Positions 3,001-18,224 of a stretch of DNA of 19,871 nt are shown piece after piece. The position numbers and the translations under genes are program-made. Below the pieces are notes generated by a model. That model saw nothing but the letters and a program-made list of their open reading frames with translations. It made no database searches and had not been told where the DNA came from. The DNA lies in the NCBI GenBank assembly GCA_017649745.1, contig JAGCGE010000367.1, forward strand, positions 1 through 19,871. The letters are read 5' to 3'. This DNA comes from Clostridiales bacterium. GTDB lineage: Bacteria > Bacillota_A > Clostridia > Saccharofermentanales > Saccharofermentanaceae. Each line of letters starts with the position of its first letter. Position 1 is the stretch's first letter.

Positions 3001-5786
3001 ATGTTAATCCTAGAACAAATATGGGTGATGCAGAGGGTACGCAGTCATTCTTTACGAGCGATGGTATTGCTTTGTTTGATGTTACTCAGACAGATCAAGA
3101 GACAGGTGATGTAATATCTGATTCATTCTCTGTAGCAAAAGCGATTGTTGATGACAAGAATGGAATTTCACATGAAAACTCGTCTCTATATAATACTGCT
3201 TATACCGGTGCTTATTCAGGTACGGATAGTACAACAAATGGTGCATATGTTAAGCAAATGCTTGATGCAGGTGATGATGCCGATATCAGACTAACAACAT
3301 ATGGAACTGAAATGGGACTTCCTGACGGTTACAATGGTGATGATTTCCCTGTTATTGCTTTGGGTGGTGCTGCTAATAACTATTGGTATACTGAGTATAT
3401 CGAATCATATATCAGGTTAATGACTAATACAAAGGATTCATATAATGTAGCTTCGTCTTCGGGAAAGTACAATATTAAGATTTGGTCATGTCGTTATGAT
3501 CCGATAACAGGTCAGTATAGCGTTATCACAAATGAAGCTGATAGTGAGAAGAGTATCTATATTAACAACAACAGATTCATAATGCGAGAGAATAAAGCTG
3601 ACTCATTAAATAAGGATCAGGGACAGTTTACGCTGATAGATGTTCAGTTCCTTAATCCTATGAACAACAAGGAAGTCGCTTATCATCTGTTTATCCCTGT
3701 TCTGACTCAGAAGATGGCAAAATTCGAATTCCATTCTGACGTAAGGCAAGGTACTGATTATGTTGCATCTGATTATAATGAGATCTCAACAAATAATGTG
3801 TATGCCGGAAACTTCGATTCTTGGACAACGGCTTATGTTCAGTTTAAGTATTCCGTCTCTGATATAAATACAATACTTAATACCGGTCGTGGATTGAAGT
3901 GGAACAGTGATAAGGTTGTTACGTTCAATTATACGAGTGATAAGGATCTTGCTGACGGAACTCAATTTGTATTACTTGATGCGAATAATAATAGAGATAA
4001 GGCTTATTATTTGAACAAGAGTGCTTCAATGACATCAGCCTCTACCGGTTCTTATCCGAAAGACAGTCTTGTTTTCGCTGACTTTAAGGAAAAGGATGGT
4101 ACGACTCCATTTGAGAATGCTACTCTCTATGATCTTGTTGGAAATACAATAAGATACAGTCAGAATAGCAATGGTAAGTACTATGAGGTTGCTGAAGGTA
4201 CTGAAGGAATTGTAGCTTGTGCATATGATTCGTCAGGCGGAAATGTTAAGTATTTCAAAGAGTATACATCCGGAAATGGAACAAGATATGACCTTTCTGC
4301 AACAGAGGATATCGTCGAGTCTTATTACATCAGTATGTACGCTTATTCTAAGGATAATAAGCCGGATAATACGAAGAAGACGGATAATGCTTATGCGTTT
4401 ACCATTACATGTCCTACAACATTGAACGGTATCGTTACAAGCAGAAAGAAGGCTGAGACTAACACGACTGTATATATCGGAAATATGTTTGAGCAAACAC
4501 TTACATTCTCTGATCAGACACCTAATGTGGTTGTTTCAAACTATAATAACGAGCTTACAGTTACTTTAACTTCTGAAGTAAGATTTGCTGATACTTCTAA
4601 TAAGAGGTATTTCCAGGATAAGCTAAGTTCAGCAGGTCTGTCACTCTATCAGGGATTCTTACTCGATATGAATAAGAAGAATGACGGAGGTCAGAAGACA
4701 GGCAGTTCAAGAGTATCGGGAATTGAAGAGTACTCTTATACGATTACGACTTCTTCAGATCCGAATCAGGGCGGAACATATAGAGAGATCAATCTTGATG
4801 ATGTTCCATATATCTATGTTGAACCTGTCAGTATTTCGATACCTTCATCAACTACTGATTCTAATTGGACAAGTACTCAGCAGGCGACTGTAACGATCAA
4901 GTTCTCAGCGGATGAAGCTGAACTAGCTAATATGTTCATGGCTAGAATCGCTGAAGGATCTCTTGCAGGTAATAACTTCCATGCTTCTGCGAATATCGAT
5001 TTCACGAGCGAAGGCGTTGAGTATTCGAACATGAGATATTCGAGAGAAGATCTGAGTCACAGATACTATATGGAAAGAGAAGAGAAACTTGATCTGACTC
5101 TTACAGCAGATGAGCAGAGTTTGCCTGACGAATATGATAAGACAGGTGAGCAGAGCCAGAACTATAGTGCTTTAGGTATCAACTCGAAGTATATCAATAC
5201 CGGAAAGAAGTACTCTGAGAACTATGGTGATAAGGAACATATTGAAGCAATTGCCAATATTGATCTTTCTAAGCTTCCTGATCATTATATTGACGGATCA
5301 TATTCGTTGAGACTCACATTGACTCTTAATCAAAAGCGTGACTCCGGATCATCAGGTTATATCTATTCTGATGTGCCGATTGATACTTATCTGCAGAACT
5401 TCAAACTGTTGAGTAAGGATGCCAATAACGATGGTGTTCAGGATGAGATCACTTCAAGCACGGTGAAGAGCGCTGCAAATGGTGATTACATCTATACGTT
5501 CAATCTTAGTGGCGATCCGTCTACTTGGCTGATCAACTATGATGCGACAGGTCAATTGTTTGATGCAAGAGTAGCGTTCGATGTCATTGCTGCTGATGAC
5601 TTTGAGGCTATTACAGGTTATCTGTATTCCAATTATCAGTTGAAGATGACAGCTGAGATCGTTGATTCGGCAACAGGTAATACTGTATTTAGCTCAGATG
5701 AGGATTGGATCATCTATACAAACGCAAGAGTTAATGCTCAGTTTGTTGCTCCAGCTTCGAATAATTCTCAGAACTCAGGTGGTTGA
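1..5786 (+). CDS. Large secreted/surface repeat protein with GLUG-like repeats (5' end missing)
   Basis: The frame is open from base 3, so the real start lies upstream; about 1,927 residues are visible. The first half (to about base 2,700) carries many degenerate repeats of the form GG-[VILM]-[IVF]-G-x-[IV], for example near bases 320, 435, 1640, 1730, 2170, 2262, 2400, 2535 and 2632. These alternate with short Ile/Asn/Ser-rich beta strands and resemble GLUG-type beta-helix repeats of Gram-positive surface proteins. The second half looks like beta-sandwich modules without such repeats. Near base 5,420 a loop DANNDGVQDE matches a calcium-binding EF-hand or dockerin-like loop. The protein ends in a short Asn/Ser/Gly tail with no LPxTG motif, basic tail or hydrophobic anchor. 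An extracellular location is inferred from composition and repeats, because the signal peptide would be outside the window. Adhesion or matrix roles are possible but unproven. Confidence 0.8.
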   Translation, partial: KDWTAAQVREYLCGAYYQIQGEITLNRFVGLGAADNNTDGRYAFRGVIVGASGAKINNNSNVPLIKVSNGSVVRNLTIEINTTNNVATTASTSTAFGYSTSKNMYYGGVIGEIMGGDNIIDNVRVNYSNYLRVGTTGQYLYTIGGYVGVVVNGGLIFRNMPANPLNNQELTDGSFLVGSSSAGSSYSRSSDTKHLYINSFVGRVINGYAINETNSYSGDTGSYTLDNSNKNYRIADVNKAPGSNIISFGDFTATNANDKLCIPNGQSLFILSLITQSGAGSAPTADGTYAYSIGYDGTTKYDGTSAVSYAATHLATYEYVGNVNSDEARSDWTQSCRDRVNSKTCVPYIISKYTLGSGESYLARTVTSRTYLIELTTSNGDYKLPECFRGIGSICKLDGMANGAVTEVPSVSSSDLADEDGKYVMKIYGLKGNDSKIWINLNYKTYSNLNDNYIYTVYKSTNDNSMTDSRVHVGFGLFNYVKQIPQSGKNNTTYNTTSGYYIGDFTLTGQVIVKEYGSGGAEITQTYGNSSDATGKNMQRLRHSVGGMIGVLCIDDYVNLVNADLDDIIISGPYMVGGYIGRVNITERNMQSGNNMNYIFVNGCDAKKTRITCGGGHCGGIVAGSHAGYMCVYVNTAPNTNTSDEDNRASDGYYMSTMELSMNSNSNDGGCGTSGVIGGIRNGHSVKIWINNLGITGYSDSEKDYKAEIKNIASSFKKDNNSVAGFIGYVRKAESIVITNSSVSNINIQGQNAGGLFGYIDNFTTAELYGTSPKIKIYNCDVYADDIASGYNITSALNAGGITGGFITNKTYSNTVVGYDGSTYIYDIDGVNVYNYTISGSNTCGGLIGTASNGVRSIVNSSVHNCTLRCGSNKSMGGIVGSTSIAISGYNISSHDNLFAGLSNSATTSATKGNFIGTAGSYAIKIVAFSRNNNTYNGSGLSADYGSGTNCYIVCSDYRGVCENSESPNKTPSNMTDLPIGSTLADVGSGARGDYFPYANVNPRTNMGDAEGTQSFFTSDGIALFDVTQTDQETGDVISDSFSVAKAIVDDKNGISHENSSLYNTAYTGAYSGTDSTTNGAYVKQMLDAGDDADIRLTTYGTEMGLPDGYNGDDFPVIALGGAANNYWYTEYIESYIRLMTNTKDSYNVASSSGKYNIKIWSCRYDPITGQYSVITNEADSEKSIYINNNRFIMRENKADSLNKDQGQFTLIDVQFLNPMNNKEVAYHLFIPVLTQKMAKFEFHSDVRQGTDYVASDYNEISTNNVYAGNFDSWTTAYVQFKYSVSDINTILNTGRGLKWNSDKVVTFNYTSDKDLADGTQFVLLDANNNRDKAYYLNKSASMTSASTGSYPKDSLVFADFKEKDGTTPFENATLYDLVGNTIRYSQNSNGKYYEVAEGTEGIVACAYDSSGGNVKYFKEYTSGNGTRYDLSATEDIVESYYISMYAYSKDNKPDNTKKTDNAYAFTITCPTTLNGIVTSRKKAETNTTVYIGNMFEQTLTFSDQTPNVVVSNYNNELTVTLTSEVRFADTSNKRYFQDKLSSAGLSLYQGFLLDMNKKNDGGQKTGSSRVSGIEEYSYTITTSSDPNQGGTYREINLDDVPYIYVEPVSISIPSSTTDSNWTSTQQATVTIKFSADEAELANMFMARIAEGSLAGNNFHASANIDFTSEGVEYSNMRYSREDLSHRYYMEREEKLDLTLTADEQSLPDEYDKTGEQSQNYSALGINSKYINTGKKYSENYGDKEHIEAIANIDLSKLPDHYIDGSYSLRLTLTLNQKRDSGSSGYIYSDVPIDTYLQNFKLLSKDANNDGVQDEITSSTVKSAANGDYIYTFNLSGDPSTWLINYDATGQLFDARVAFDVIAADDFEAITGYLYSNYQLKMTAEIVDSATGNTVFSSDEDWIIYTNARVNAQFVAPASNNSQNSGG

Positions 5787-5906: not shown

Positions 5907-6749
5907 ATGCGCAAGAGAAACGAGATAGTTAACTTTTTTATGATCGCAGTAGGTGCTGTTATTGCAGCTTTCGCGATCGAGGATTTCCTGGCTCCGAACA
6001 ATATATTTGACGGTGGAATAGTCGGTGTGTCGATGATCGTTGCCGGATTTACAGGATGGAAGTTAAGTATTCTTACTTGGGTGTTCAACGTGCCGTTCCT
6101 GCTTTTCGCGCTGAGGAGAAAAGGAAAGATCTTTGTGGTGAGATCTGTCTTTGCTATGACGGTATTTGCTGGTGGAGTCGGATTTTTCGAGAGGACGCCT
6201 GCTATTACGGATGAGCATCTGCTGGCGGTGACTTTCGGAGGACTGATCCTGGGTGTCGGAGTCGGCCTTGTCTTAAGATATGGCGGATGCTTGGATGGAA
6301 CTGAGATCGTTGCTTCTGTACTGAGTAAGAAGATACATCAGTCGATCGGAAGACAGGTACTGTTCTTTAATATCGCACTTTATCTGTTGGTCGGCGTTAT
6401 GTACGGATGGAACAGAGGACTTTATTCGATCCTGACTTATGTGCTCGTTAGTGTCGTGATGACCAAAGTCGAGGAAGGATTCGATGCTCAGCGCGGTTGT
6501 CTTATCTTCACGAATGATAATGTTAAAGAAATAAAGACTCGCATTCATGATGAGCTCGGCAGAACTTGTACCGAGTGGAATGCAACAGGATATATCGGAG
6601 GCGAGAACAAGGCGCTCTATGTTGTTGTGAGCCAGTATGAGATGAGGCAGCTTCGCGATATCGTTGCGGCATATAACTGCTTTGTTACTGTGTGCGAGAT
6701 CGATGAGATCATCGGTAAGAATGTGAAGAGCAAGAAACAAAAACGATAG
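5907..6749 (+). CDS. YitT family membrane protein (DUF161 + DUF2179)
   Basis: A 280-residue protein with the YitT-family layout. The N-terminal part has about five hydrophobic segments (roughly residues 8-30, 35-48, 52-70, 78-96, 105-125), and another lies around 150-185. Family-like stretches are LAPNNIFDGGIVG (28-40) and the second-half motif RYGGCLDGTEIVAS (124-137). A soluble C-terminal DUF2179-like domain (about 190-270) contains RGCLIFTND and NATGYIGGENKALYVVVS. Length and order are normal for the family. The ATG at 5907 is preceded by GGGAGAAGAG; an ATG at 5890 is out of frame. A weak promoter candidate is TCTGCA-17-TATAGT (5855-5883). The transported substrate of YitT proteins is not established. 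No terminator follows, and its stop codon overlaps the next promoter's -35 box. Confidence 0.9.
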   Translation: MRKRNEIVNFFMIAVGAVIAAFAIEDFLAPNNIFDGGIVGVSMIVAGFTGWKLSILTWVFNVPFLLFALRRKGKIFVVRSVFAMTVFAGGVGFFERTPAITDEHLLAVTFGGLILGVGVGLVLRYGGCLDGTEIVASVLSKKIHQSIGRQVLFFNIALYLLVGVMYGWNRGLYSILTYVLVSVVMTKVEEGFDAQRGCLIFTNDNVKEIKTRIHDELGRTCTEWNATGYIGGENKALYVVVSQYEMRQLRDIVAAYNCFVTVCEIDEIIGKNVKSKKQKR

Positions 6750-6775
6750 ACAAGAACAATTGTTCGAGTTATAAT
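6747..6775 (+). promoter_or_regulatory. Promoter with LexA/SOS-type operator in the spacer
   Basis: TAGACA (6747-6752) and a perfect TATAAT (6770-6775) are separated by exactly 17 bases, which predicts transcription from about 6782. The perfect 12-base palindrome GAACAATTGTTC occupies 6754-6765, inside the spacer. It fits the Firmicute LexA (DinR) core GAAC-N4-GTTC. A repressor bound there would block RNA polymerase, so damage-inducible expression of the downstream RNA and DUF3800 gene is inferred. The -35 box starts at the stop codon of the yitT-like gene. Confidence 0.6.
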
Positions 6776-6781
6776 GATAAA

Positions 6782-6982
6782 GTGTTTCGAATAGTTTTAG
6801 TTTAAATTGAAGAATTATTGACAAGTTGTAGAAACTTAGGATGATTTGAATGTATTTTTTATACGGATCCTGCTTCAATCAACTTGGTAGTATTATGTTA
6901 TATGATATTATTATATTAGTTGTGGGCTGGTTATTTAACCCAGGTCCAACCGATTGGCGGGCAGACGGTCCGCCATTTTTTT
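6782..6982 (+). ncRNA. Structured leader / small RNA upstream of DUF3800 gene
   Basis: Between the predicted start (about 6782) and the terminator lies an RNA of about 200 nt. A nested stem-loop spans 6822-6886: CAAGTTG with CAACTTG (6822-6828/6880-6886), GAA with TTC (6831-6833/6874-6876), AGGAT with ATCCT (6838-6842/6867-6871), and GTAT with ATAC (6852-6855/6861-6864) around a T5 loop. An AU-rich linker follows. A second hairpin, CTGGTT-ATTT-AACC with one bulged base before AG, occupies 6927-6943, and the terminator closes the RNA. Breaker-lab comparative work described several 'DUF3800' RNA motifs upstream of such genes; whether this is one of them is untested. It could be a cis leader, an antitoxin-like RNA or a free small RNA. 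The RNA call rests on structure and context only. Confidence 0.5.
6955..6982 (+). terminator. Intrinsic terminator/attenuator just before the DUF3800 ribosome site
   Basis: Stem TGGCGG/CCGCCA (6955-6960 and 6970-6975) with a 9-base loop is followed directly by seven T (6976-6982). The AGGA ribosome site starts at 6983, so there is no spacer between terminator and translation start. An alternative hairpin, CCAA-CCGA-TTGG (6946-6957), would sequester the first bases of the terminator stem. That permits an attenuation switch, though this is inference. Confidence 0.75.
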
Positions 6983-6991
6983 AGGACAGAA

Positions 6992-7681
6992 ATGAAGGAA
7001 TTAAGCATATTTGTAGATGAATCCGGTGACTTTGGTGCATACGCACAACATTCTCCATACTATATTGTTACTATGATCTTTCATGATCAGGATAACGATA
7101 TATCTGCCAATATAGCAAAACTTAATGATGAGATGCGTAATCTCGGATATAAACATGACTTTGCTATTCATACAGAGCCTCTTATCAGGAAAGAGGAAAT
7201 CTATCATGATACTCCCCCAAATGAAAGAAGAGCTGTATTTTCAAAATTGTTCTTTTTTACTTTGAGATCCAATATTCTATATAAGAGTTTTATATTTGAG
7301 AAAAAAGAATTCATTGACACATTACAGTTGGAAGCAGGTATGGTAAAAGAGATATCATTTTTCTTAAGAAGCAACTTAGTGTACTTTCAAGGTTTTGATA
7401 ATGTAATTCTGTATTACGATAACGGCCAAAGGCAACTTACACGAATTCTTAACGCTGTGCTTGCGACTGAGTTGGTGGAGTATTCTGTGCGCAAAGTACT
7501 TCCTAAGGAGTATAAGCTCTTTCAAGCTGCGGATCTTATCTGCACATTAGCACTTCTGAATGCCAAATGTCAGCATGGTGAGTTGACGAGATCTGAAGAG
7601 ATCATATTCCATTCAAAGAGAGAACTATATAGACAATTTATTAGACCTATCAAGAAGAAATCATTTGATAACCAAAAGTAG
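6992..7681 (+). CDS. DUF3800 family protein (predicted RNase H-like fold)
   Basis: A 229-residue protein with the DUF3800 hallmarks: N-terminal IFVDESGDFG (residues 6-15), a middle strand ending ILYYDNGQ (139-146), and the C-terminal motif LFQAADLICTLAL (176-188). The acidic residues D9, E10, D143 and D181 lie where the family's putative nuclease-like site is expected, so they look intact. ATG 6992 was chosen because AGGA (6983-6986) stands in front of it and the family motif begins at residue 6; a GTG at 6920 in the same frame would start inside the structured leader and terminator. The biochemical role of DUF3800 is not established; members are common in mobile and defence-like contexts. 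Here it sits behind an SOS-type promoter, a structured RNA and a terminator. It is not cotranscribed with the yitT-like gene unless readthrough occurs. Confidence 0.85.
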   Translation: MKELSIFVDESGDFGAYAQHSPYYIVTMIFHDQDNDISANIAKLNDEMRNLGYKHDFAIHTEPLIRKEEIYHDTPPNERRAVFSKLFFFTLRSNILYKSFIFEKKEFIDTLQLEAGMVKEISFFLRSNLVYFQGFDNVILYYDNGQRQLTRILNAVLATELVEYSVRKVLPKEYKLFQAADLICTLALLNAKCQHGELTRSEEIIFHSKRELYRQFIRPIKKKSFDNQK

Positions 7682-7834: not shown

Positions 7835-10800
7835 TTAAGTCTCGAACTTGATGTCTCGATCAAGCCTCTCATCGTTAATGATGACATTGAATCTTCCGTT
7901 AGAGATTGAGATGTCGTCGCTCGTAGCGTAAGATCCAACTCCAAGACTGTTATGGATGTTTACTCTGGTGTCTGAACCGATGAGCTTGATCTTTGTCTTG
8001 CAATCCATACCGCCTACGCCGAGGGCATGCTTTCCGACTGTCTCGAGTCTTACGCCGACTCTGTCAGCGAGGTAATCAGTCATGCCGTTAAGAGAACCAA
8101 TACATGTGGAATTATCGGAACTTATATTGATGTCGATCCTTGAATCCTTGATGGAGATTCCTGCAGGGTCATTACCGCAAGTACCGATACATGACATTAT
8201 GTTGCCGCTACCGATTATAGTGACAGATGTCTTCTCAATGCTAACGTCGGTCGTCTTTTCGAGAGAACCGATACCAACACCCTTATCGACGCTAAGATCC
8301 AGATTAATGTTACAGTTATAGATGTCGAGTGTAGACTCGGCATTAAATGAACCAATACCTACACACGTTGTTCCGCCGACCCTGATGGAGTATAGACCTC
8401 TGCGGATCTTGATGATGCCGCCCTTAACAGAGCCAATACCGACACCTGTGTTGCCGCTTCCTGTAACGGTGATCTTACCATTCTGACTGAAGATGAGTTC
8501 ACCGTGTTCGGAAGAGGAATCGTTACCAATTCCGTAGAAATCAGTGTCATTAGTATCTATTGTAAGATTACCTTCGCCTTCAAAGGTGAGGGTAGATGTT
8601 TTCGCGAGCTTGATACCAGCACCGTGCAAGGTATTGTTACCCTTTAAGGTGATCATGAGATCGCAGCCTTCTTCGATCTCGATACAAGGACGTTCCTTGA
8701 TATTGGACAGGTCAACGTTCTCGAGAGTGATCTCGCCTGTGTAGCCTTCTACTACGCGCATATGAAGATCAGTCTTCAAGTTAGGCGCACCGATGATAGA
8801 GATGTTCTTATAAACAGCGCCTTCTTTACCGACAACGATATCGGAGTAACCACCCTTGGAAAGAAGGGAAAGAGATACTCGGTTACTGTTGCCTGATTCG
8901 TAGATCATCTTGCTGTATCCGTCATCCTTCTCCTGAGTAAATCTGACGATCTCGTTACGGATCTTGTTGTCTATGCTCTGGATCGGGTTAACTGCTGGCT
9001 TTGCAGTATAGTAGCCCTGGATCAGATCGACACCCATATGGATGACTGTGCGAAGTTCTTCTGTAGTCTCGATACCTTCTGCAAGAGAGATGATCTTGTT
9101 ATCGTGGCAGAACTTGATGATCTCACGAACAAAGTGCTGCTTTTGCGGTGCTTTGTCGATTCCTGTCAGGAGGAAACGGTCGATCTTAACAAAGTTTGGC
9201 ATGTATCTAATGAGGTTATTGATGTTGGAATAACCTGTGCCGAAGTCATCGATCGCTATCTGAACGCCGAGTTTCTCCAGGAAACTCTTGTAAGCAGGAA
9301 GATCGATATCGTTGATCTCTGCTTCTTCTGTAAACTCGACGACCATTCTCTCGGCATTGCGTGTCAGAAGATCATTGACCTTATTAAGTTCGAGTTCTTC
9401 GAGTTGGACTCCCGGAATGCTGTTGATAAAGATCTTGGCATTGCCGAACTTGTCAGGGTTCTTCTCGATGTTCGAAAGGATGTTAATGAATGTTGCTCGC
9501 TCGACATCTTCAAGACGATCAAGAAGACCTGCGTATTTAACGATCATGAGAGGAGAAGCTTTCTCTTCTGTCGATGAACGCATCAAAGCTTCATACGCGA
9601 AGATCTCGCCTGTAGTAGCACTTACGATCGGCTGGAAAACATAAGACAACAGGTTGTTGTCGAGGATCTTAGAAACAAGATCGCATTCTGTCTTCTCGTC
9701 AGGTCCAAGACTGTTGTAACGTTCCTGCTTAGTGAAGAACTTACTGCTTCGCATGTTCTCCATGAGCTTCTGGTAACCGTTGACCGTGAAGGCACGTCTT
9801 AAGTATTCGAATCCGACAGAAACATCATCCATCCATTGTCTGAAAGTTTCATCATAACTTATCGGATTATCGCCGAAACTTAGTACAGCATAACCAAAGT
9901 TCTCTGTCTCGAAATAGAACGGAGTAATGAAAAATGCCGTCGGCGTACTCCTCTTGTTATCGAGATAAGGTATGAGATCCTTCGTCTCGAAAACAGCGTT
10001 AGTATTAACATAACCCTCATTAGATGAACTGTCGTAATTGACTGCCAGGATCATCTCTGACGGATAGTTGTTGTGAGTAATATGAACGTAAGGAGTATTC
10101 TGAAGGTCACGCCAAGGCTCTGACAGACACAAAGAGAACTTCTTTACGTTAGGTATCTGATATACGTAAGAATAGACAACACCGAAGAAAGAAGCGAGTT
10201 CAGTCTGGGTCATAAGGTTACGTGACATCATGTTATATACGTCATTACGTTCTTCAGCCATTCTGCAGGTAGGCCACTTCTTACGTCTCGGATCGAAAGC
10301 CTTCAGGTCGGAACACTTACATCCGCATGTCTCACCGCAAATGAACTTTGGCTTAGCCTCAAATGGCTTAGGAGTGATGCCTTCGATCTTACTCTTGATG
10401 TAATATGAAGCATACTTTCCCATCTCTTCATAAGGCATATCACTTGATGTAACGAAGAGGGGACTTAATTGTCCTTCTTCAGCTGTATCGAATCCTGCGA
10501 CCGCTACTTCGTCAGGGATCTTGACTCCCATTTCGTAAAGGGCGTTACATACACCGATAGCCATCTCATCATTAGCACATACGATAGCTTCAGGAAGACC
10601 TTTATCACCGGATGCGAATTCCTTGACAGCATATTCACCGCTACTGAACCAAAAGTCACCATGGAATATCCTTGATTCATCAACTTTAAGACCATGAGCT
10701 AACATCGTATCTTCATATGCGTGAAGTCTGCTCAATGAGTGCAGATGCCACTTTTTACCTGACATATATGCGATGTCCTTGTAGCCGTGAACTTCGATCA

Positions 10801-11179
10801 TGTGCTTCACGATCTGAGCCATGCCGTCATAGTCATCTTCAAGGACTGTAGGGAACAACTTGCTCTCTCTATCGATTATGAGGACCGGACCTGTGAAAGA
10901 TTCGCTGAGCTTGTTTTCGAGACGGTCAGCAAGATCTGATGTCTGAAGACTGTCCTTAAGGACTACGACTCCGTCATACTGATTAGGATCAAAGAGATTA
11001 TAGATATTGGTCTCTGCTTTCTCGCGAGCATCCGAAGACTGATATTTCCTATACATGGAGAATACGCACACATCAAAATCATCGGAAAAAGCCTGCTGGA
11101 GGAATCCGTTAACAAATCTCTTCTGATGCGTTTCATCGACTTGAGCTGCGAGTAACGCAATTCTTCTTCTCCTGCTCAT
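7835..11179 (-). CDS. LacI-type sensor + EAL c-di-GMP phosphodiesterase + GIGS-repeat beta-helix-like tail
   Basis: This 1114-residue protein has no signal peptide, so it is probably cytosolic. Residues 1-290 are a LacI/PurR-type ligand-binding domain without the DNA-binding helix-turn-helix (for example PEAIVCANDEMAIGVCNAL, 196-214). It ends in a Cys cluster, CGETCGCKC (281-289). Residues 300-480 form a middle domain, possibly GAF-like. Residues 500-735 are an EAL domain with the key residues present: YEALMR (E530), FINS (N586), VEFTE (E615), DDFGTGYS (D644/D645), VKID (K665), AEGIET (E701) and QGYYTAKP (Q721). Hydrolysis of c-di-GMP is therefore predicted. Residues 770-1114 contain about eight GIG[SN]-like turns (near 883, 914, 941, 969, 998, 1027, 1055, 1081), one every 26-30 residues, as in a beta-helix. 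No GGDEF domain is present. The ATG at 11179 has TGAGGT upstream. Ligand unknown. Confidence 0.88.
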   Translation of the reverse strand: MSRRRRIALLAAQVDETHQKRFVNGFLQQAFSDDFDVCVFSMYRKYQSSDAREKAETNIYNLFDPNQYDGVVVLKDSLQTSDLADRLENKLSESFTGPVLIIDRESKLFPTVLEDDYDGMAQIVKHMIEVHGYKDIAYMSGKKWHLHSLSRLHAYEDTMLAHGLKVDESRIFHGDFWFSSGEYAVKEFASGDKGLPEAIVCANDEMAIGVCNALYEMGVKIPDEVAVAGFDTAEEGQLSPLFVTSSDMPYEEMGKYASYYIKSKIEGITPKPFEAKPKFICGETCGCKCSDLKAFDPRRKKWPTCRMAEERNDVYNMMSRNLMTQTELASFFGVVYSYVYQIPNVKKFSLCLSEPWRDLQNTPYVHITHNNYPSEMILAVNYDSSSNEGYVNTNAVFETKDLIPYLDNKRSTPTAFFITPFYFETENFGYAVLSFGDNPISYDETFRQWMDDVSVGFEYLRRAFTVNGYQKLMENMRSSKFFTKQERYNSLGPDEKTECDLVSKILDNNLLSYVFQPIVSATTGEIFAYEALMRSSTEEKASPLMIVKYAGLLDRLEDVERATFINILSNIEKNPDKFGNAKIFINSIPGVQLEELELNKVNDLLTRNAERMVVEFTEEAEINDIDLPAYKSFLEKLGVQIAIDDFGTGYSNINNLIRYMPNFVKIDRFLLTGIDKAPQKQHFVREIIKFCHDNKIISLAEGIETTEELRTVIHMGVDLIQGYYTAKPAVNPIQSIDNKIRNEIVRFTQEKDDGYSKMIYESGNSNRVSLSLLSKGGYSDIVVGKEGAVYKNISIIGAPNLKTDLHMRVVEGYTGEITLENVDLSNIKERPCIEIEEGCDLMITLKGNNTLHGAGIKLAKTSTLTFEGEGNLTIDTNDTDFYGIGNDSSSEHGELIFSQNGKITVTGSGNTGVGIGSVKGGIIKIRRGLYSIRVGGTTCVGIGSFNAESTLDIYNCNINLDLSVDKGVGIGSLEKTTDVSIEKTSVTIIGSGNIMSCIGTCGNDPAGISIKDSRIDINISSDNSTCIGSLNGMTDYLADRVGVRLETVGKHALGVGGMDCKTKIKLIGSDTRVNIHNSLGVGSYATSDDISISNGRFNVIINDERLDRDIKFET

Positions 11180-11373: not shown

Positions 11374-12669
11374 TTACTGATAACTGTTTTTCGCTAGAAT
11401 AGAAGACAGCATATGGATCGTTTTATCGCTGACGCCTGACTGATGTAGATAATCAGAATATTTTCCAGCAATGCTTTGGACCTGATCAATTATCTTATCG
11501 CATTTGACTTTGCTTATGCCCATTGTTTTTCCTGACGCTATAAGATCATTATAGTTGATAGATTCCGTTTTACTGTTGATACGCATTTGGTGTGCACGAA
11601 GCCAGGTGTTATCAGGGTTGTATGAGAAAGTAAGATCATATGCAGGAGCCAGTTTCCAAATACCTTTTTTATCCATTATAAATGCAGTGTTTTTTACATG
11701 ATCATCCTGGTTGACCATTATCACGTTAAATACCATCCTGCGATAAAGCTCAATAACATCAGTAACGGAATTTGTTAGTTGCATGGTTATATTCGCTGCT
11801 TCTTCGTAGCTTGTGTGACCAGGGATATTGTAATCAATATGTGCAATCGCTGCTAAAGTCTGCATGTGAAGCTTTTGATTCTGAATGCGGTCAAAACGTT
11901 TGGTCATAAAATGATAACGCCCGTTTTCTTCAAGTAGTCTGCTTTCATTCATCTTTATTCCTGAATCTTTAGCCATAAGGTAATATGCATATTCGATTCT
12001 GGTGTATTGAACATCATCTTCAAGATTATGGTCACCATTTTTATTAACACCATCAAACTTCAGCAACCAATATTCAAAACCATTTCCGGCATCGATCTGA
12101 CCGCTCTTTATCATTTGCTTTTCTTCGTTCCAAGCGATGAGAGCTTTTGCTCTTGCGCCGCCTGCGGAAGTTCCGAGTTTGATCAACTGACTATAATCCG
12201 GGTCATCAAATGACCTGATTTGTTGATCTTTCTTTTCTGACAGGATATCAGAAGCGAATTTAACCATTTTTGCGACATCAACTTCTTCGTTAAACTCTGT
12301 TTCTGGACCTGAAGCAGGATAATATTCAAGTGCACCCATTCCTCTTTTACCTGTATAACATAATCTGTCTATAGCATTGAAGTCACTTAAAGAACGTCCT
12401 TGCTCTGAGAGCCAACGATCAATTACACGATTACCGAATTTATCAGGAAGGGAATCAGCAACCAGCCCTGGTGCTCCATGAAAAGCGTTTCCCACTAATT
12501 CAGGGAATGAATATACTCTTCTGCTTAGTGGCATCTTGAGAGGAGATAATTCTATTTTGCTGTCAAGAAATCTATTATCATATTCAAAAGATATGTATGC
12601 TTTATCTTCATCCTGATGAATGATGCCTATCCTTGTACCCCATAAAAAAACTTCTGCTGTATTTATCAT
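11374..12669 (-). CDS. hipA: HipA-type serine/threonine kinase toxin
   Basis: A 431-residue HipA homologue of normal length. The N-terminal coupling domain (about 1-110) contains LSPLKMPLS, FPELVGNAFHGAPGLVADSLPDKFGN and the RMGALE-like KRGMGALEYYP. The kinase core has a glycine-rich loop GTSAGGARAKA (166-176), a catalytic lysine in YWLLKF (K204), the catalytic loop NQDDHVKN (320-327; D322 and N327), and metal-binding APAYDL (D345). All look intact, so active kinase is predicted. E. coli HipA phosphorylates glutamyl-tRNA synthetase and causes growth arrest; the target here is unknown. The start codon overlaps the hipB stop in an ATGA, which implies translational coupling. Confidence 0.9.
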   Translation of the reverse strand: MINTAEVFLWGTRIGIIHQDEDKAYISFEYDNRFLDSKIELSPLKMPLSRRVYSFPELVGNAFHGAPGLVADSLPDKFGNRVIDRWLSEQGRSLSDFNAIDRLCYTGKRGMGALEYYPASGPETEFNEEVDVAKMVKFASDILSEKKDQQIRSFDDPDYSQLIKLGTSAGGARAKALIAWNEEKQMIKSGQIDAGNGFEYWLLKFDGVNKNGDHNLEDDVQYTRIEYAYYLMAKDSGIKMNESRLLEENGRYHFMTKRFDRIQNQKLHMQTLAAIAHIDYNIPGHTSYEEAANITMQLTNSVTDVIELYRRMVFNVIMVNQDDHVKNTAFIMDKKGIWKLAPAYDLTFSYNPDNTWLRAHQMRINSKTESINYNDLIASGKTMGISKVKCDKIIDQVQSIAGKYSDYLHQSGVSDKTIHMLSSILAKNSYQ

Positions 12670-12986
12670 TTGTCCTCACCCCATACGAAAGTAACATCTT
12701 GAGCGTTTCCTCGTGAACCGGAAGCTCTGCTACGCTTCTTTTCGCTCTCGAGATAGTAAGAAGGTCTGATACTCTGATCGGGAATCATTTCAAGAAGACG
12801 ATCACCGAGATCCAAAGCGCGCATCAAACTTATGAATCTTGACATACTGATATCTTCACCATTCTCAAATCGCGATATACTTCTGACGGAAACTCCGGAT
12901 TTTTCCGCAAGTTCACTTTGGGTTAACGGGTAGTCTATCCTGTATTGTTTTAGTCTATCCACAATAATCATGTAATCCTGATTCAT
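12666..12986 (-). CDS. hipB: HipB-type Xre antitoxin / autorepressor
   Basis: A 106-residue protein with an Xre-type helix-turn-helix in residues 18-70 (LTQSELAEKSGVSVRSISRFENGEDISMSRFISLMRAL, shown here as consecutive family-like helices). The basic, Ser/Arg-rich tail (about 83-106) probably contacts the toxin. The start ATG has GGAG 8 bases upstream. It precedes hipA with a 4-base ATGA overlap, the usual antitoxin-first order. Regulation is probably autorepression through the two direct repeats at 13011-13073. Confidence 0.85.
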   Translation of the reverse strand: MNQDYMIIVDRLKQYRIDYPLTQSELAEKSGVSVRSISRFENGEDISMSRFISLMRALDLGDRLLEMIPDQSIRPSYYLESEKKRSRASGSRGNAQDVTFVWGEDK

Positions 12987-16445: not shown

Positions 16446-16724
16446 ATAGATTAAACCGTTGACGCGGAGATAACGGTGATTATGATCCCACAGAGAGCCG
16501 GCGATGCTGAGAATCCGGCGGAAGTACAGATCATCAAATGGACCGCTGAGGGTGCAGTCAAATGCCGGAAGGCAAAGTATTCTGCAACGTGAGGGCATAC
16601 GTTACTTGCCGGGGATATGATGGTATCTCGCTAAGCGCACGATCTTTATATCGTGAATCAAGGTGGCACCGCGAATTATATTCGTCCTTGACAGAAATCT
16701 CAGATGTTCTGTCGAGGATTTTTT
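16446..16724 (+). promoter_or_regulatory. T-box leader, tRNA-Trp specific
   Basis: The T-box sequence AGGTGGCACCGCG is at 16661-16673. Stem I is visible: GGT with ACC (16475-16477/16542-16544) and ATGATC with GATCAT (16482-16487/16529-16534) bracket the specifier loop, whose 3' strand contains TGG (16539-16541), the Trp codon. AGAGA and the GCCGG/CCGGC hairpin (16492-16518) are the distal part. The terminator is TCCTTGACAGA/TCTGTCGAGGA (16685-16695/16708-16718) followed by six T. The antiterminator pairs AAGG (16660-16663) with CCTT (16686-16689). Uncharged tRNA-Trp is predicted to turn the operon on. Confidence 0.95.
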
Positions 16725-16757: not shown

Positions 16758-18224
16758 ATGAAGATCTTACCTGAACTTGATGAGGTAAAGAAGTTCGCCA
16801 AAGAAGGACGTTATGATATCGTTCCGGTTAGTATGGAAATTCTTTCAGATATCAGAACTCCGATCGAGACATTGAAGATCCTTAAAAGTGTCTCCACACA
16901 TTGCTACATGTTAGAGTCTGTAGCGGAGAATGAGAAGTGGGGAAGATACACTTTCCTGGGTTATGATCCTAAGACATCAGTAACTGTAAATAACGGCAAG
17001 ATGCTTATCGGAGACGTTAGCATCGAGACTGATGATCCTAATACATACTTAAGACAGATCTTAGGTAAATACAGAAGTCCGAAGCTCAATTATCTTCCGC
17101 CATTTACAGGTGGACTTGTCGGATATTTCTCATATGATTATCTCTATTACAGTGAACCGACAGCCAAGGTTGAGACTGATGACGAAGAGGGCTTCAAGGA
17201 TGTAGATCTTATGCTTTTCGATAAGGTCATAGCATTCGATAATTATTCCCAGAAGATCATCATCATCGTGAACATGTCTCTTGGTGATATCGAAGTTGAA
17301 TACAACAGAGCTATCATGGAGATCGGCAGGATCAAGGATCTTATCGTTAACGGTAAGGCTACAGGAGATCATAAGGGTAAGCTCTTGGGCGAGCCTCAGC
17401 CTCTCTTCAACAAGGACGAGTTCTGCGATATGGTTCAGAAAGCTAAGCACTATATCCATGAGGGCGACATCTTCCAGATCGTTCTTTCGAATAGACTCGC
17501 AGCTCCTTTCGAGGGCAGCCTTCTTGATACATACAGATACTTAAGGACTATTAATCCTTCACCTTATATGTTCTACTTCTCAGGCACAGATGTTGAGGTT
17601 GCAGGCGCTTCACCTGAGACACTCGTTAACCTTAAGAACGGTGTCCTTCACACATTCCCGCTTGCAGGTACAAGGCCTAGGGGAAGGACTGAAGCAGAGG
17701 ATAAGGCACTCGAGAGAGACCTCCTCCACGATGAGAAAGAACTTGCTGAGCACAACATGCTCGTTGATCTTGGACGTAATGACTTAGGCAAGATCAGTAA
17801 GTTCGGTACAGTCGAAGTCGAGAAGCTTCATTCCATCGAGCGTTTCTCCCATGTAATGCACATCGGTTCTACCGTAAGAGGCAAGATCAGAGACGACAAG
17901 GATGCTCTAGATGCAGTAGAGGCTGTACTTCCTGCAGGAACCCTCTCAGGCGCACCTAAGATCAGGGCATGTCAGCTCATAGGACAGCTCGAAAAGAATA
18001 AGCGCGGTATCTACGGCGGAGCTATCGGATATATCGATTTCTCAGGCAACATGGATACATGTATCGCAATAAGGATCGCATATAAGAAGAACGGCAAGGT
18101 ATTCGTTCGAAGCGGCGCGGGAATCGTTTATGATTCAGTTCCTGAGAAGGAATACGAAGAGACACTTAACAAGGCAAGAGCAGTCTTGAACGCACTTAAG
18201 AAGGCACAGGAGGAAGAAGAATGA
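16758..18224 (+). CDS. trpE: Anthranilate synthase component I
   Basis: A 488-residue TrpE that makes anthranilate from chorismate with ammonia from TrpG. The Trp-feedback element is seen as CYMLES (49-54). The catalytic domain carries SPYMFYF (268-274), GASPETLVNL (283-292), LAGTRPRG (302-309), EHNMLVDLGRNDLG (331-344), LPAGTLSGAPK (391-401) and AGAGIVYDSVPEKEYEE (453-469). All look intact, with normal length. The Trp-binding site suggests feedback inhibition in addition to the T-box. AAAAGGAGG precedes the ATG. The stop overlaps the trpG start (ATGA). Confidence 0.97.
   Translation: MKILPELDEVKKFAKEGRYDIVPVSMEILSDIRTPIETLKILKSVSTHCYMLESVAENEKWGRYTFLGYDPKTSVTVNNGKMLIGDVSIETDDPNTYLRQILGKYRSPKLNYLPPFTGGLVGYFSYDYLYYSEPTAKVETDDEEGFKDVDLMLFDKVIAFDNYSQKIIIIVNMSLGDIEVEYNRAIMEIGRIKDLIVNGKATGDHKGKLLGEPQPLFNKDEFCDMVQKAKHYIHEGDIFQIVLSNRLAAPFEGSLLDTYRYLRTINPSPYMFYFSGTDVEVAGASPETLVNLKNGVLHTFPLAGTRPRGRTEAEDKALERDLLHDEKELAEHNMLVDLGRNDLGKISKFGTVEVEKLHSIERFSHVMHIGSTVRGKIRDDKDALDAVEAVLPAGTLSGAPKIRACQLIGQLEKNKRGIYGGAIGYIDFSGNMDTCIAIRIAYKKNGKVFVRSGAGIVYDSVPEKEYEETLNKARAVLNALKKAQEEEE

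What the first reader, a model, noticed from the sequence alone, without database searches (positions are those of the whole stretch)
6747..7681. SOS-type promoter driving a structured RNA, terminator and DUF3800 gene: a possible RNA-plus-protein system
TAGACA-17-TATAAT has a perfect GAAC-N4-GTTC palindrome in its spacer. It is followed by a nested stem-loop (6822-6886), a second hairpin, an intrinsic terminator and then the DUF3800 start codon. Known: LexA boxes in Firmicutes fit this core; comparative RNA surveys reported structured motifs upstream of DUF3800 genes; type III toxin-antitoxin loci share the order RNA, terminator, protein. Inference: a damage-inducible unit in which RNA and a nuclease-like protein interact. 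By simple base counting the palindrome would occur about 0.3 times in 20 kb by chance, so its placement in a promoter spacer is the stronger argument.
Basis: partly seen in the sequence, partly recalled or inferred. Interest (0 to 1): 0.85.

Follow-up and report, generated by a model that had tools for sequence, protein, structure and literature searches.

The report
RNA-plus-nuclease cassette, DUF3800-XI type
A short two-hairpin RNA sits directly in front of a nuclease-like gene in this bacterium and in many relatives; the RNA belongs to a known but unexplained family and may hold the nuclease in check, while the DNA-damage switch proposed for it is a local feature.

Summary
The RNA-plus-protein half of the finding is right; the SOS half and the first stem are not part of the conserved unit. 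The conserved RNA is 6923-6980: a bulged hairpin plus the "terminator" hairpin. It is Rfam DUF3800-XI (34.7 bits, below the curated 37.8). My own model from 82 loci, window included, gives 63 bits, with strong covariation. The RNA has a conserved promoter just upstream (here 6884-6911), is not repeated, and ends a median 17 nt before the start codon. The 6822-6886 stem lies upstream of that promoter and folds only modestly. The GAAC-N4-GTTC promoter at 6747-6775 is real and unlikely by chance (0 of 400 shuffles), but only 2 of 84 loci have the palindrome. In two samples (299 and 291 genomes) all 52 full-length DUF3800 frames carry the RNA, whereas 55 of 103 assessable RNAs have a broken or missing DUF3800. 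The protein models as RNase H-like, closest to RNase HII. Best reading: an RNA-neutralised nuclease that works like type III toxin-antitoxin or AbiF loci without being a member. No experiment supports this.

The parts
6884..6911 (+). Probable promoter of the RNA (TTGGTA-16-TATTAT, TG before the -10); the -10 ends 11 nt before the motif
   Evidence: 9 of 12; promoter excess at this position across 80 loci, mean 9.51 of 12 against 6.76 in a control stretch, MWU p 1.5e-17, and 7.47 in shuffles
6923..6948 (+). Stem 1 of DUF3800-XI RNA: bulged 10-bp hairpin (6923-6932 with 6937-6940 and 6943-6948)
   Evidence: Rfam RF02975 34.7 bits; R1 63.0 bits; covariation
6949..6955 (+). Linker, variable in length among relatives
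   Evidence: alignment A2
6956..6982 (+). Stem 2 (6956-6974) and T-run: intrinsic-terminator-like hairpin that is also part of the conserved RNA
6983..6991 (+). Spacer with AGGA, a possible ribosome-binding site; too short for another promoter
   Evidence: sequence; motif end to start codon median 17 nt, 82 of 83 loci at most 45 nt
6992..7681 (+). DUF3800 protein, 229 aa, RNase H-like fold closest to RNase HII, with D9, E10, D143, D181 invariant in the alignment
   Evidence: PF12686; 95-row alignment; model pLDDT 92.9; fold matches
6747..6775 (+). Second, upstream promoter-like site with a LexA-type palindrome (6754-6765) in its spacer; local, not part of the conserved unit

Best explanation
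The window carries a two-part cassette: a small RNA of the Rfam DUF3800-XI family and a DUF3800 protein with an RNase H-like fold. The RNA is transcribed from its own promoter; most transcripts should stop at its second hairpin and a minority read through to make the protein. I propose that stem 1 (with the linker and stem 2) binds the nuclease and keeps it inactive, so that RNA in excess protects the cell, and that loss of the RNA or a trigger such as phage attack frees the nuclease. Shown here by comparison: the RNA, its structure, the promoter position, the layout, the constant presence of the RNA beside a full-length protein, co-inheritance, and the predicted fold. Inferred: read-through, RNA-protein binding, nuclease activity, toxicity, neutralisation, trigger.
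For: RNA: 18 pairs, 97.1% of cells paired, 10 pairs changed on both sides, 0 of 500 shuffles as high. Layout: promoter just upstream, then the terminator hairpin, then 5-57 nt to the start codon, so the gene seems reachable only by read-through or from farther upstream. Constant partner: in samples of 299 and 291 genomes, 52 of 52 full-length DUF3800 frames have the RNA. Of these, 48 were R1 hits and 4 were seen on reading upstream: L178 (only stem 2, cut by a contig end), L179 and L180 (L180 also 36.5 bits), and the second gene of L183. L180 and L214 lack a standard start codon in frame. RNA often without protein: of 107 R1 hits, 48 have a full-length DUF3800, 22 a broken one, 33 none, and 4 are cut by contig ends. 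One broken DUF3800 lacks the RNA (L181). Stem 1 is somewhat less well paired where DUF3800 is gone (310 of 340 cells) than elsewhere (690 of 720), while stem 2 is not (255 of 272 against 550 of 576): per-sequence p 0.010 and 0.27. RNA and protein distances correlate, r 0.72 over 67 loci, 0 of 2000 permutations as high, partial r 0.74 given phylum. Precedent: AbiF/RCd22 in C. difficile has the same order and a demonstrated RNA-protein neutralisation (PMC12373285, abstract and passages).
Against: No toxicity, binding or expression data. The excess of RNAs without protein is also expected if a dead cassette simply takes its first lesion in the larger target (690 against about 58 nt). Orphan RNAs can be kept because stem 2 serves as terminator of the upstream gene; several share one site. 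The stem 1 difference falls to p 0.053 when one of four orphans at a shared site is kept, cells are not independent, and R1 favours paired RNAs. The RNA is not repeated, unlike type III antitoxins. A DUF3800 gene in Legionella is listed as essential in a Tn-seq paragraph that also names antitoxin genes (PMC7811196, passage), which does not suit a plain toxin; whether it has an RNA was not examined.
Confidence: 0.5

Rival explanations
1. RNA-dependent nuclease: the RNA is a cofactor, scaffold or sensor that the DUF3800 protein needs in order to act, for example in phage defence, rather than an inhibitor.
For: Constant pairing and co-inheritance fit equally; RNase H-like fold shared with RNA-guided enzymes, with PIWI domains among the VIA rows; DUF3800 proteins occur in some CRISPR class 2 loci (PMC10910872 passages; PMC12669027 passage).
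Against: No long variable, guide-like segment in the RNA. A cofactor gives no clear reason for a terminator between RNA and gene. Loss of the RNA before the protein was seen in at most one locus (L181), though few such cases are expected.
Confidence: 0.27
2. Leader autoregulation: the RNA is an attenuator in the DUF3800 mRNA, bound by the DUF3800 protein to adjust its own read-through, with no separate RNA function.
For: The terminator lies directly before the gene; stem 1 pairing is somewhat lower when the protein is lost.
Against: No antiterminator pairing seen by eye; both hairpins form together in the predicted folds; the presumed leader to the end of the T-run is only about 64 nt in the window.
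Confidence: 0.13
3. LexA-controlled damage-inducible unit: LexA at 6754-6765 represses transcription of the RNA and DUF3800.
For: Palindrome within an 11/12 promoter, 0 of 400 shuffles.
Against: Palindrome within up to 400 nt upstream in 2 of 84 loci; a promoter-like site next to the RNA begins 109 nt downstream of this one; in L001 other coding sequence occupies that place. It could still modulate this one copy.
Confidence: 0.1

Closest known systems
DUF3800-XI RNA (Rfam RF02975) with DUF3800 protein (PF12686)
   Same: Same two-hairpin RNA directly upstream of the same protein family. Of 16 distinct loci scanned with Rfam, 15 reach the gathering score (11 of 11; 5 of 6, L020 missing; L030 in both)
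   Different: The window's copy scores 3.1 bits below the gathering score; the printed Rfam structure pairs stem 1 only, whereas stem 2 also covaries
AbiF / RCd22 (abiF RNA, RF03085) of Clostridioides difficile
   Same: Promoter, structured RNA, Rho-independent terminator, no predicted promoter before the gene, protein by read-through (PMC12373285 passages)
   Different: Abi_2 family protein instead of DUF3800; two motif copies per RNA; neutralisation shown there, not here
Type III toxin-antitoxin (ToxIN, CptIN, TenpIN)
   Same: RNA upstream, terminator between, nuclease-like protein
   Different: No tandem RNA repeats; different protein family; no evidence yet of toxicity
RNase HII / RNase H2

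Membership tests
DUF3800-XI RNA (RF02975) | Covariance model score at or above gathering | tested here: inconclusive
   34.7 bits against gathering 37.8, E 1.6e-4; own model from 82 loci, which include the window, 63.0 bits
DUF3800-XI RNA (RF02975) | Position just upstream of a DUF3800 gene | tested here: met
DUF3800-XI RNA (RF02975) | Conserved, covarying stem 1 | tested here: met
   the window has a compensated GGUU/AACC form, as has L001
DUF3800 protein (PF12686) | Curated Pfam cut-off | tested here: met
   42.2 bits against 21
Type III toxin-antitoxin | RNA, terminator, protein order with promoter before the RNA | tested here: met
   by sequence only:
Type III toxin-antitoxin | Tandem repeats in the antitoxin RNA | tested here: not met
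   one R1 match in the window above 13 bits; no repeat family in the RNA
Type III toxin-antitoxin | Toxin of the ToxN, CptN or TenpN families | tested here: not met
   only PF12686 matched in Pfam at E 0.001; no PADLOC model at E 0.01
Type III toxin-antitoxin | Protein is toxic and the RNA neutralises it by binding | not testable with these tools
   needs expression and binding assays
AbiF | Abi_2 protein | tested here: not met
RNase HII | Structural match clearly above other RNase H-like folds | tested here: inconclusive
LexA/SOS regulon | GAAC-N4-GTTC operator overlapping a promoter | tested here: met
LexA/SOS regulon | Operator conserved at the unit in relatives | tested here: not met
   2 of 84 loci
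LexA/SOS regulon | LexA binding and induction by damage | not testable with these tools
   needs bench work

The most novel reading that the evidence does not exclude
DUF3800-XI loci are an undescribed kind of RNA-neutralised nuclease system: a single-copy, non-repeated two-hairpin RNA whose second hairpin is both binding element and terminator inhibits an RNase HII-fold toxin or abortive-infection effector. The other DUF3800 RNA families would be parallel versions, and in this strain the unit has in addition been wired to an SOS-type promoter.
Probability: 0.4. Interest if true: 0.78.

Novelty: new member of a known kind. Interest (0 to 1): 0.55.

Why it matters
DUF3800 RNAs are curated in Rfam, and I found no function for them in the searches made. 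The comparative facts here (every full-length protein in two samples has its RNA, many RNAs stand without it, a readable promoter-RNA-terminator-gene layout, an RNase H-like fold) make the question directly testable: express the protein with and without its RNA. A positive result would add a nuclease fold and an RNA type to the RNA-antitoxin repertoire.

Tried and rejected
Nested stem 6822-6886 as the functional RNA: modest fold, upstream of the likely promoter, not in L001. Conserved third gene: 575 neighbouring ORFs around 83 loci; the widest cluster is in 10 loci at varying positions, every other one in at most 3. Phage or plasmid cargo: viral contigs gave 3 loci, phages 1 partial match, plasmids 1 match at 31% identity, so not typical in those collections. 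Guide RNA: no long variable segment. Small peptide: a 44-aa ORF 6850-6984, read from the sequence, overlaps the RNA, but motif length varies among relatives by numbers not divisible by three. Solved relatives by sequence: none for the protein at E 1, and one unconvincing katanin match (E 0.17) for the profile. Empty site through the YitT neighbour: nothing at E 1e-90 in 299 genomes, which shows nothing. Weinberg et al. 2017, which I recall as the source of the DUF3800 RNAs, is not held and was not read.

Rows dropped: L079 (RNA cut by contig end) and L081 (divergent; R1 36.7 bits) were left out of A2, so 82 of 84. L122 and L197 (likely false matches), contig-end rows and one duplicate were left out of the stem test. 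The earlier stem numbers were rounded and are replaced.

Full report
What is there. The DUF3800 gene runs 6992-7681 (229 aa; PF12686). Directly before it, 6923-6980 folds into two hairpins. cmscan matches 6923-6971 to Rfam DUF3800-XI at 34.7 bits, E 1.6e-4, under the gathering score of 37.8. A search with the protein gave 4822 homologues at E 1e-5, of which 120 are listed. A scan with 30 of them aligned (A1) kept the best 80 of 225 genome loci and found 3 viral contigs. With the window that makes 84 loci. I could place the RNA in 83; in L079 the contig begins inside it. Alignment A2 holds 82 of the 84. On it the two stems give 97.1% paired cells and 10 of 18 pairs with changes on both sides; 0 of 500 shuffles reach any of the five measures. 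The model R1 built from it scores the window, one of its own rows, at 63 bits.

Where transcription starts. In 80 loci the best sigma-70 match within 70 nt upstream of the RNA averages 9.51 of 12, against 6.76 in a stretch 101-170 nt upstream (p 1.5e-17) and 7.47 in shuffles. In the 60 loci scoring 9 or more, the -10 ends either 4-15 nt or 22-39 nt before the motif. Many loci have an extra 5' hairpin of unlike sequence just before the motif: perfect stems of 5 bp or more occur in 45 of 82 loci, against 12 of 82 control stretches and 23% of shuffles. In the window the site is TTGGTA-16-TATTAT, 6884-6911, without such a hairpin. So the RNA most likely starts near 6919 (inferred), and the 6822-6886 stem is outside it. 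That stem's fold is modest (z -1.73).

The SOS part. The palindrome and promoter exist as described. Palindrome plus >=11/12 promoter arose in 0 of 400 shuffles, so I take it as a probable operator, for LexA or another factor. But within up to 400 nt upstream only the window and L026 of 84 loci have GAACN4GTTC. In L001 (81% identical protein) the preceding gene ends at 4486 and the RNA starts at 4521. The operator is a local addition.

RNA and protein as a pair. In 299 genomes drawn from the family of G002 (a Lachnospiraceae MAG), R1 is in 44 genomes, 57 hits; the protein profile matches in 35 genomes. In 291 genomes of the order of G004 (a Spirochaetaceae MAG), R1 is in 30 genomes, 50 hits; the protein in 22. 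I fetched the hits not already held and searched stop-to-stop pieces downstream. First sample: 24 full-length, 12 broken, 17 absent, 4 cut by contig ends. Second: 24 full-length, 10 broken (L208, first read as full length, has an in-frame stop near residue 17), 16 absent, one of which (L197) is probably a false match. Conversely, 52 full-length frames (27 and 25) all have the RNA: 48 as R1 hits and 4 by reading upstream, one of these (L178) showing only stem 2 because the contig ends there. Two of the 52, L180 and L214, have no standard start codon in frame. One broken gene (L181) has another hairpin instead of the RNA; L182 is at a contig end.

What the asymmetry means. This is the pattern expected if the protein is costly without the RNA. 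Two caveats are serious. A gene twelve times longer than the RNA is hit first by chance. And orphan RNAs can serve as terminators: in Treponema-type genomes L187, L188, L192, L194 and L201 share one upstream gene end. Stem 1 is less well paired after loss of the protein (310 of 340 cells against 690 of 720; per-sequence p 0.010), stem 2 is not (p 0.27). With one of four shared-site orphans kept, stem 1 gives p 0.053. I rate this as a hint that stem 1 is kept for the protein's sake.

Spread. In the midpoint-rooted protein tree of 77 loci, Spirochaetota, Fibrobacterota, Bacteroidota and Chloroflexota rows lie among Bacillota rows, with 6 label changes where 5 is the least possible. That is compatible with rare transfer between phyla but does not prove it, since many records are metagenome bins. 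RNA and protein distances go together (r 0.72 over 67 loci; partial 0.74 given phylum). No third gene is shared. The 26 genomes I chose because they hold a locus have 1-5 R1 matches each.

What is in print. In the held library DUF3800 occurs in 11 papers, 10 listed. I saw passages of five; none of those passages gives a tested function for an RNA-linked DUF3800. 'DUF3800-XI' occurs in none. The library lacks most subscription journals and preprints. The AbiF/RCd22 paper (abstract and passages) shows the same layout working as an RNA antitoxin. The E. coli ToxIN paper (passages) gives type III criteria, of which tandem repeats and toxin family fail here.

Verdict. A new member of the known DUF3800-XI family, with comparative evidence that RNA and protein depend on each other. 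I put an RNA-neutralised nuclease at about one half, an RNA-dependent nuclease at about a quarter, and leader autoregulation and SOS control lower.

Noticed in passing
L030:2485-3820: The DUF3800-XI cassette of a Salinivirgaceae MAG is flanked on both sides by elements of about 185-195 nt, each bounded by inverted Acido-Lenti-1 (RF01687) matches.
   Followed up: partly
35-nt stretch upstream of the RNA in L018, L033, L035, L039, L045, L046, L067, L075 and others: A 5' hairpin of quite different sequence but similar position before the DUF3800-XI motif, not in the Rfam model: 45 of 82 loci against 12 of 82 controls.
   Followed up: partly
L187, L188, L192, L194, L201: Orphan or decaying DUF3800-XI loci after the same upstream gene end in Treponema-type genomes, as if one old insertion had lost its gene.
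   Followed up: partly
L052:1302-2144, L019:7914-9654, L183: Second RNA copies close to the first; in L183 a broken and a full-length cassette with unlike RNAs in tandem.
   Followed up: no
window 16450-16692: T-box leader (RF00230, 94 bits) before a TrpE-like gene at 16758 (gene name from recall of the sequence).
   Followed up: no
window 11374-12986, minus strand: HipA-like protein and HTH protein pair.
   Followed up: no
window 7835-11179, minus strand: 1114-aa protein with LacI-type sugar-binding and EAL domains.
   Followed up: no
window 6850-6984: 44-aa ORF overlapping the RNA and its promoter; length changes of the motif in relatives do not keep the frame.
   Followed up: partly
window 5907-6749: YitT-family neighbour; its named close relatives are Butyrivibrio and Lachnospiraceae (72-80% identity), so the window probably comes from that group.
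   Followed up: partly
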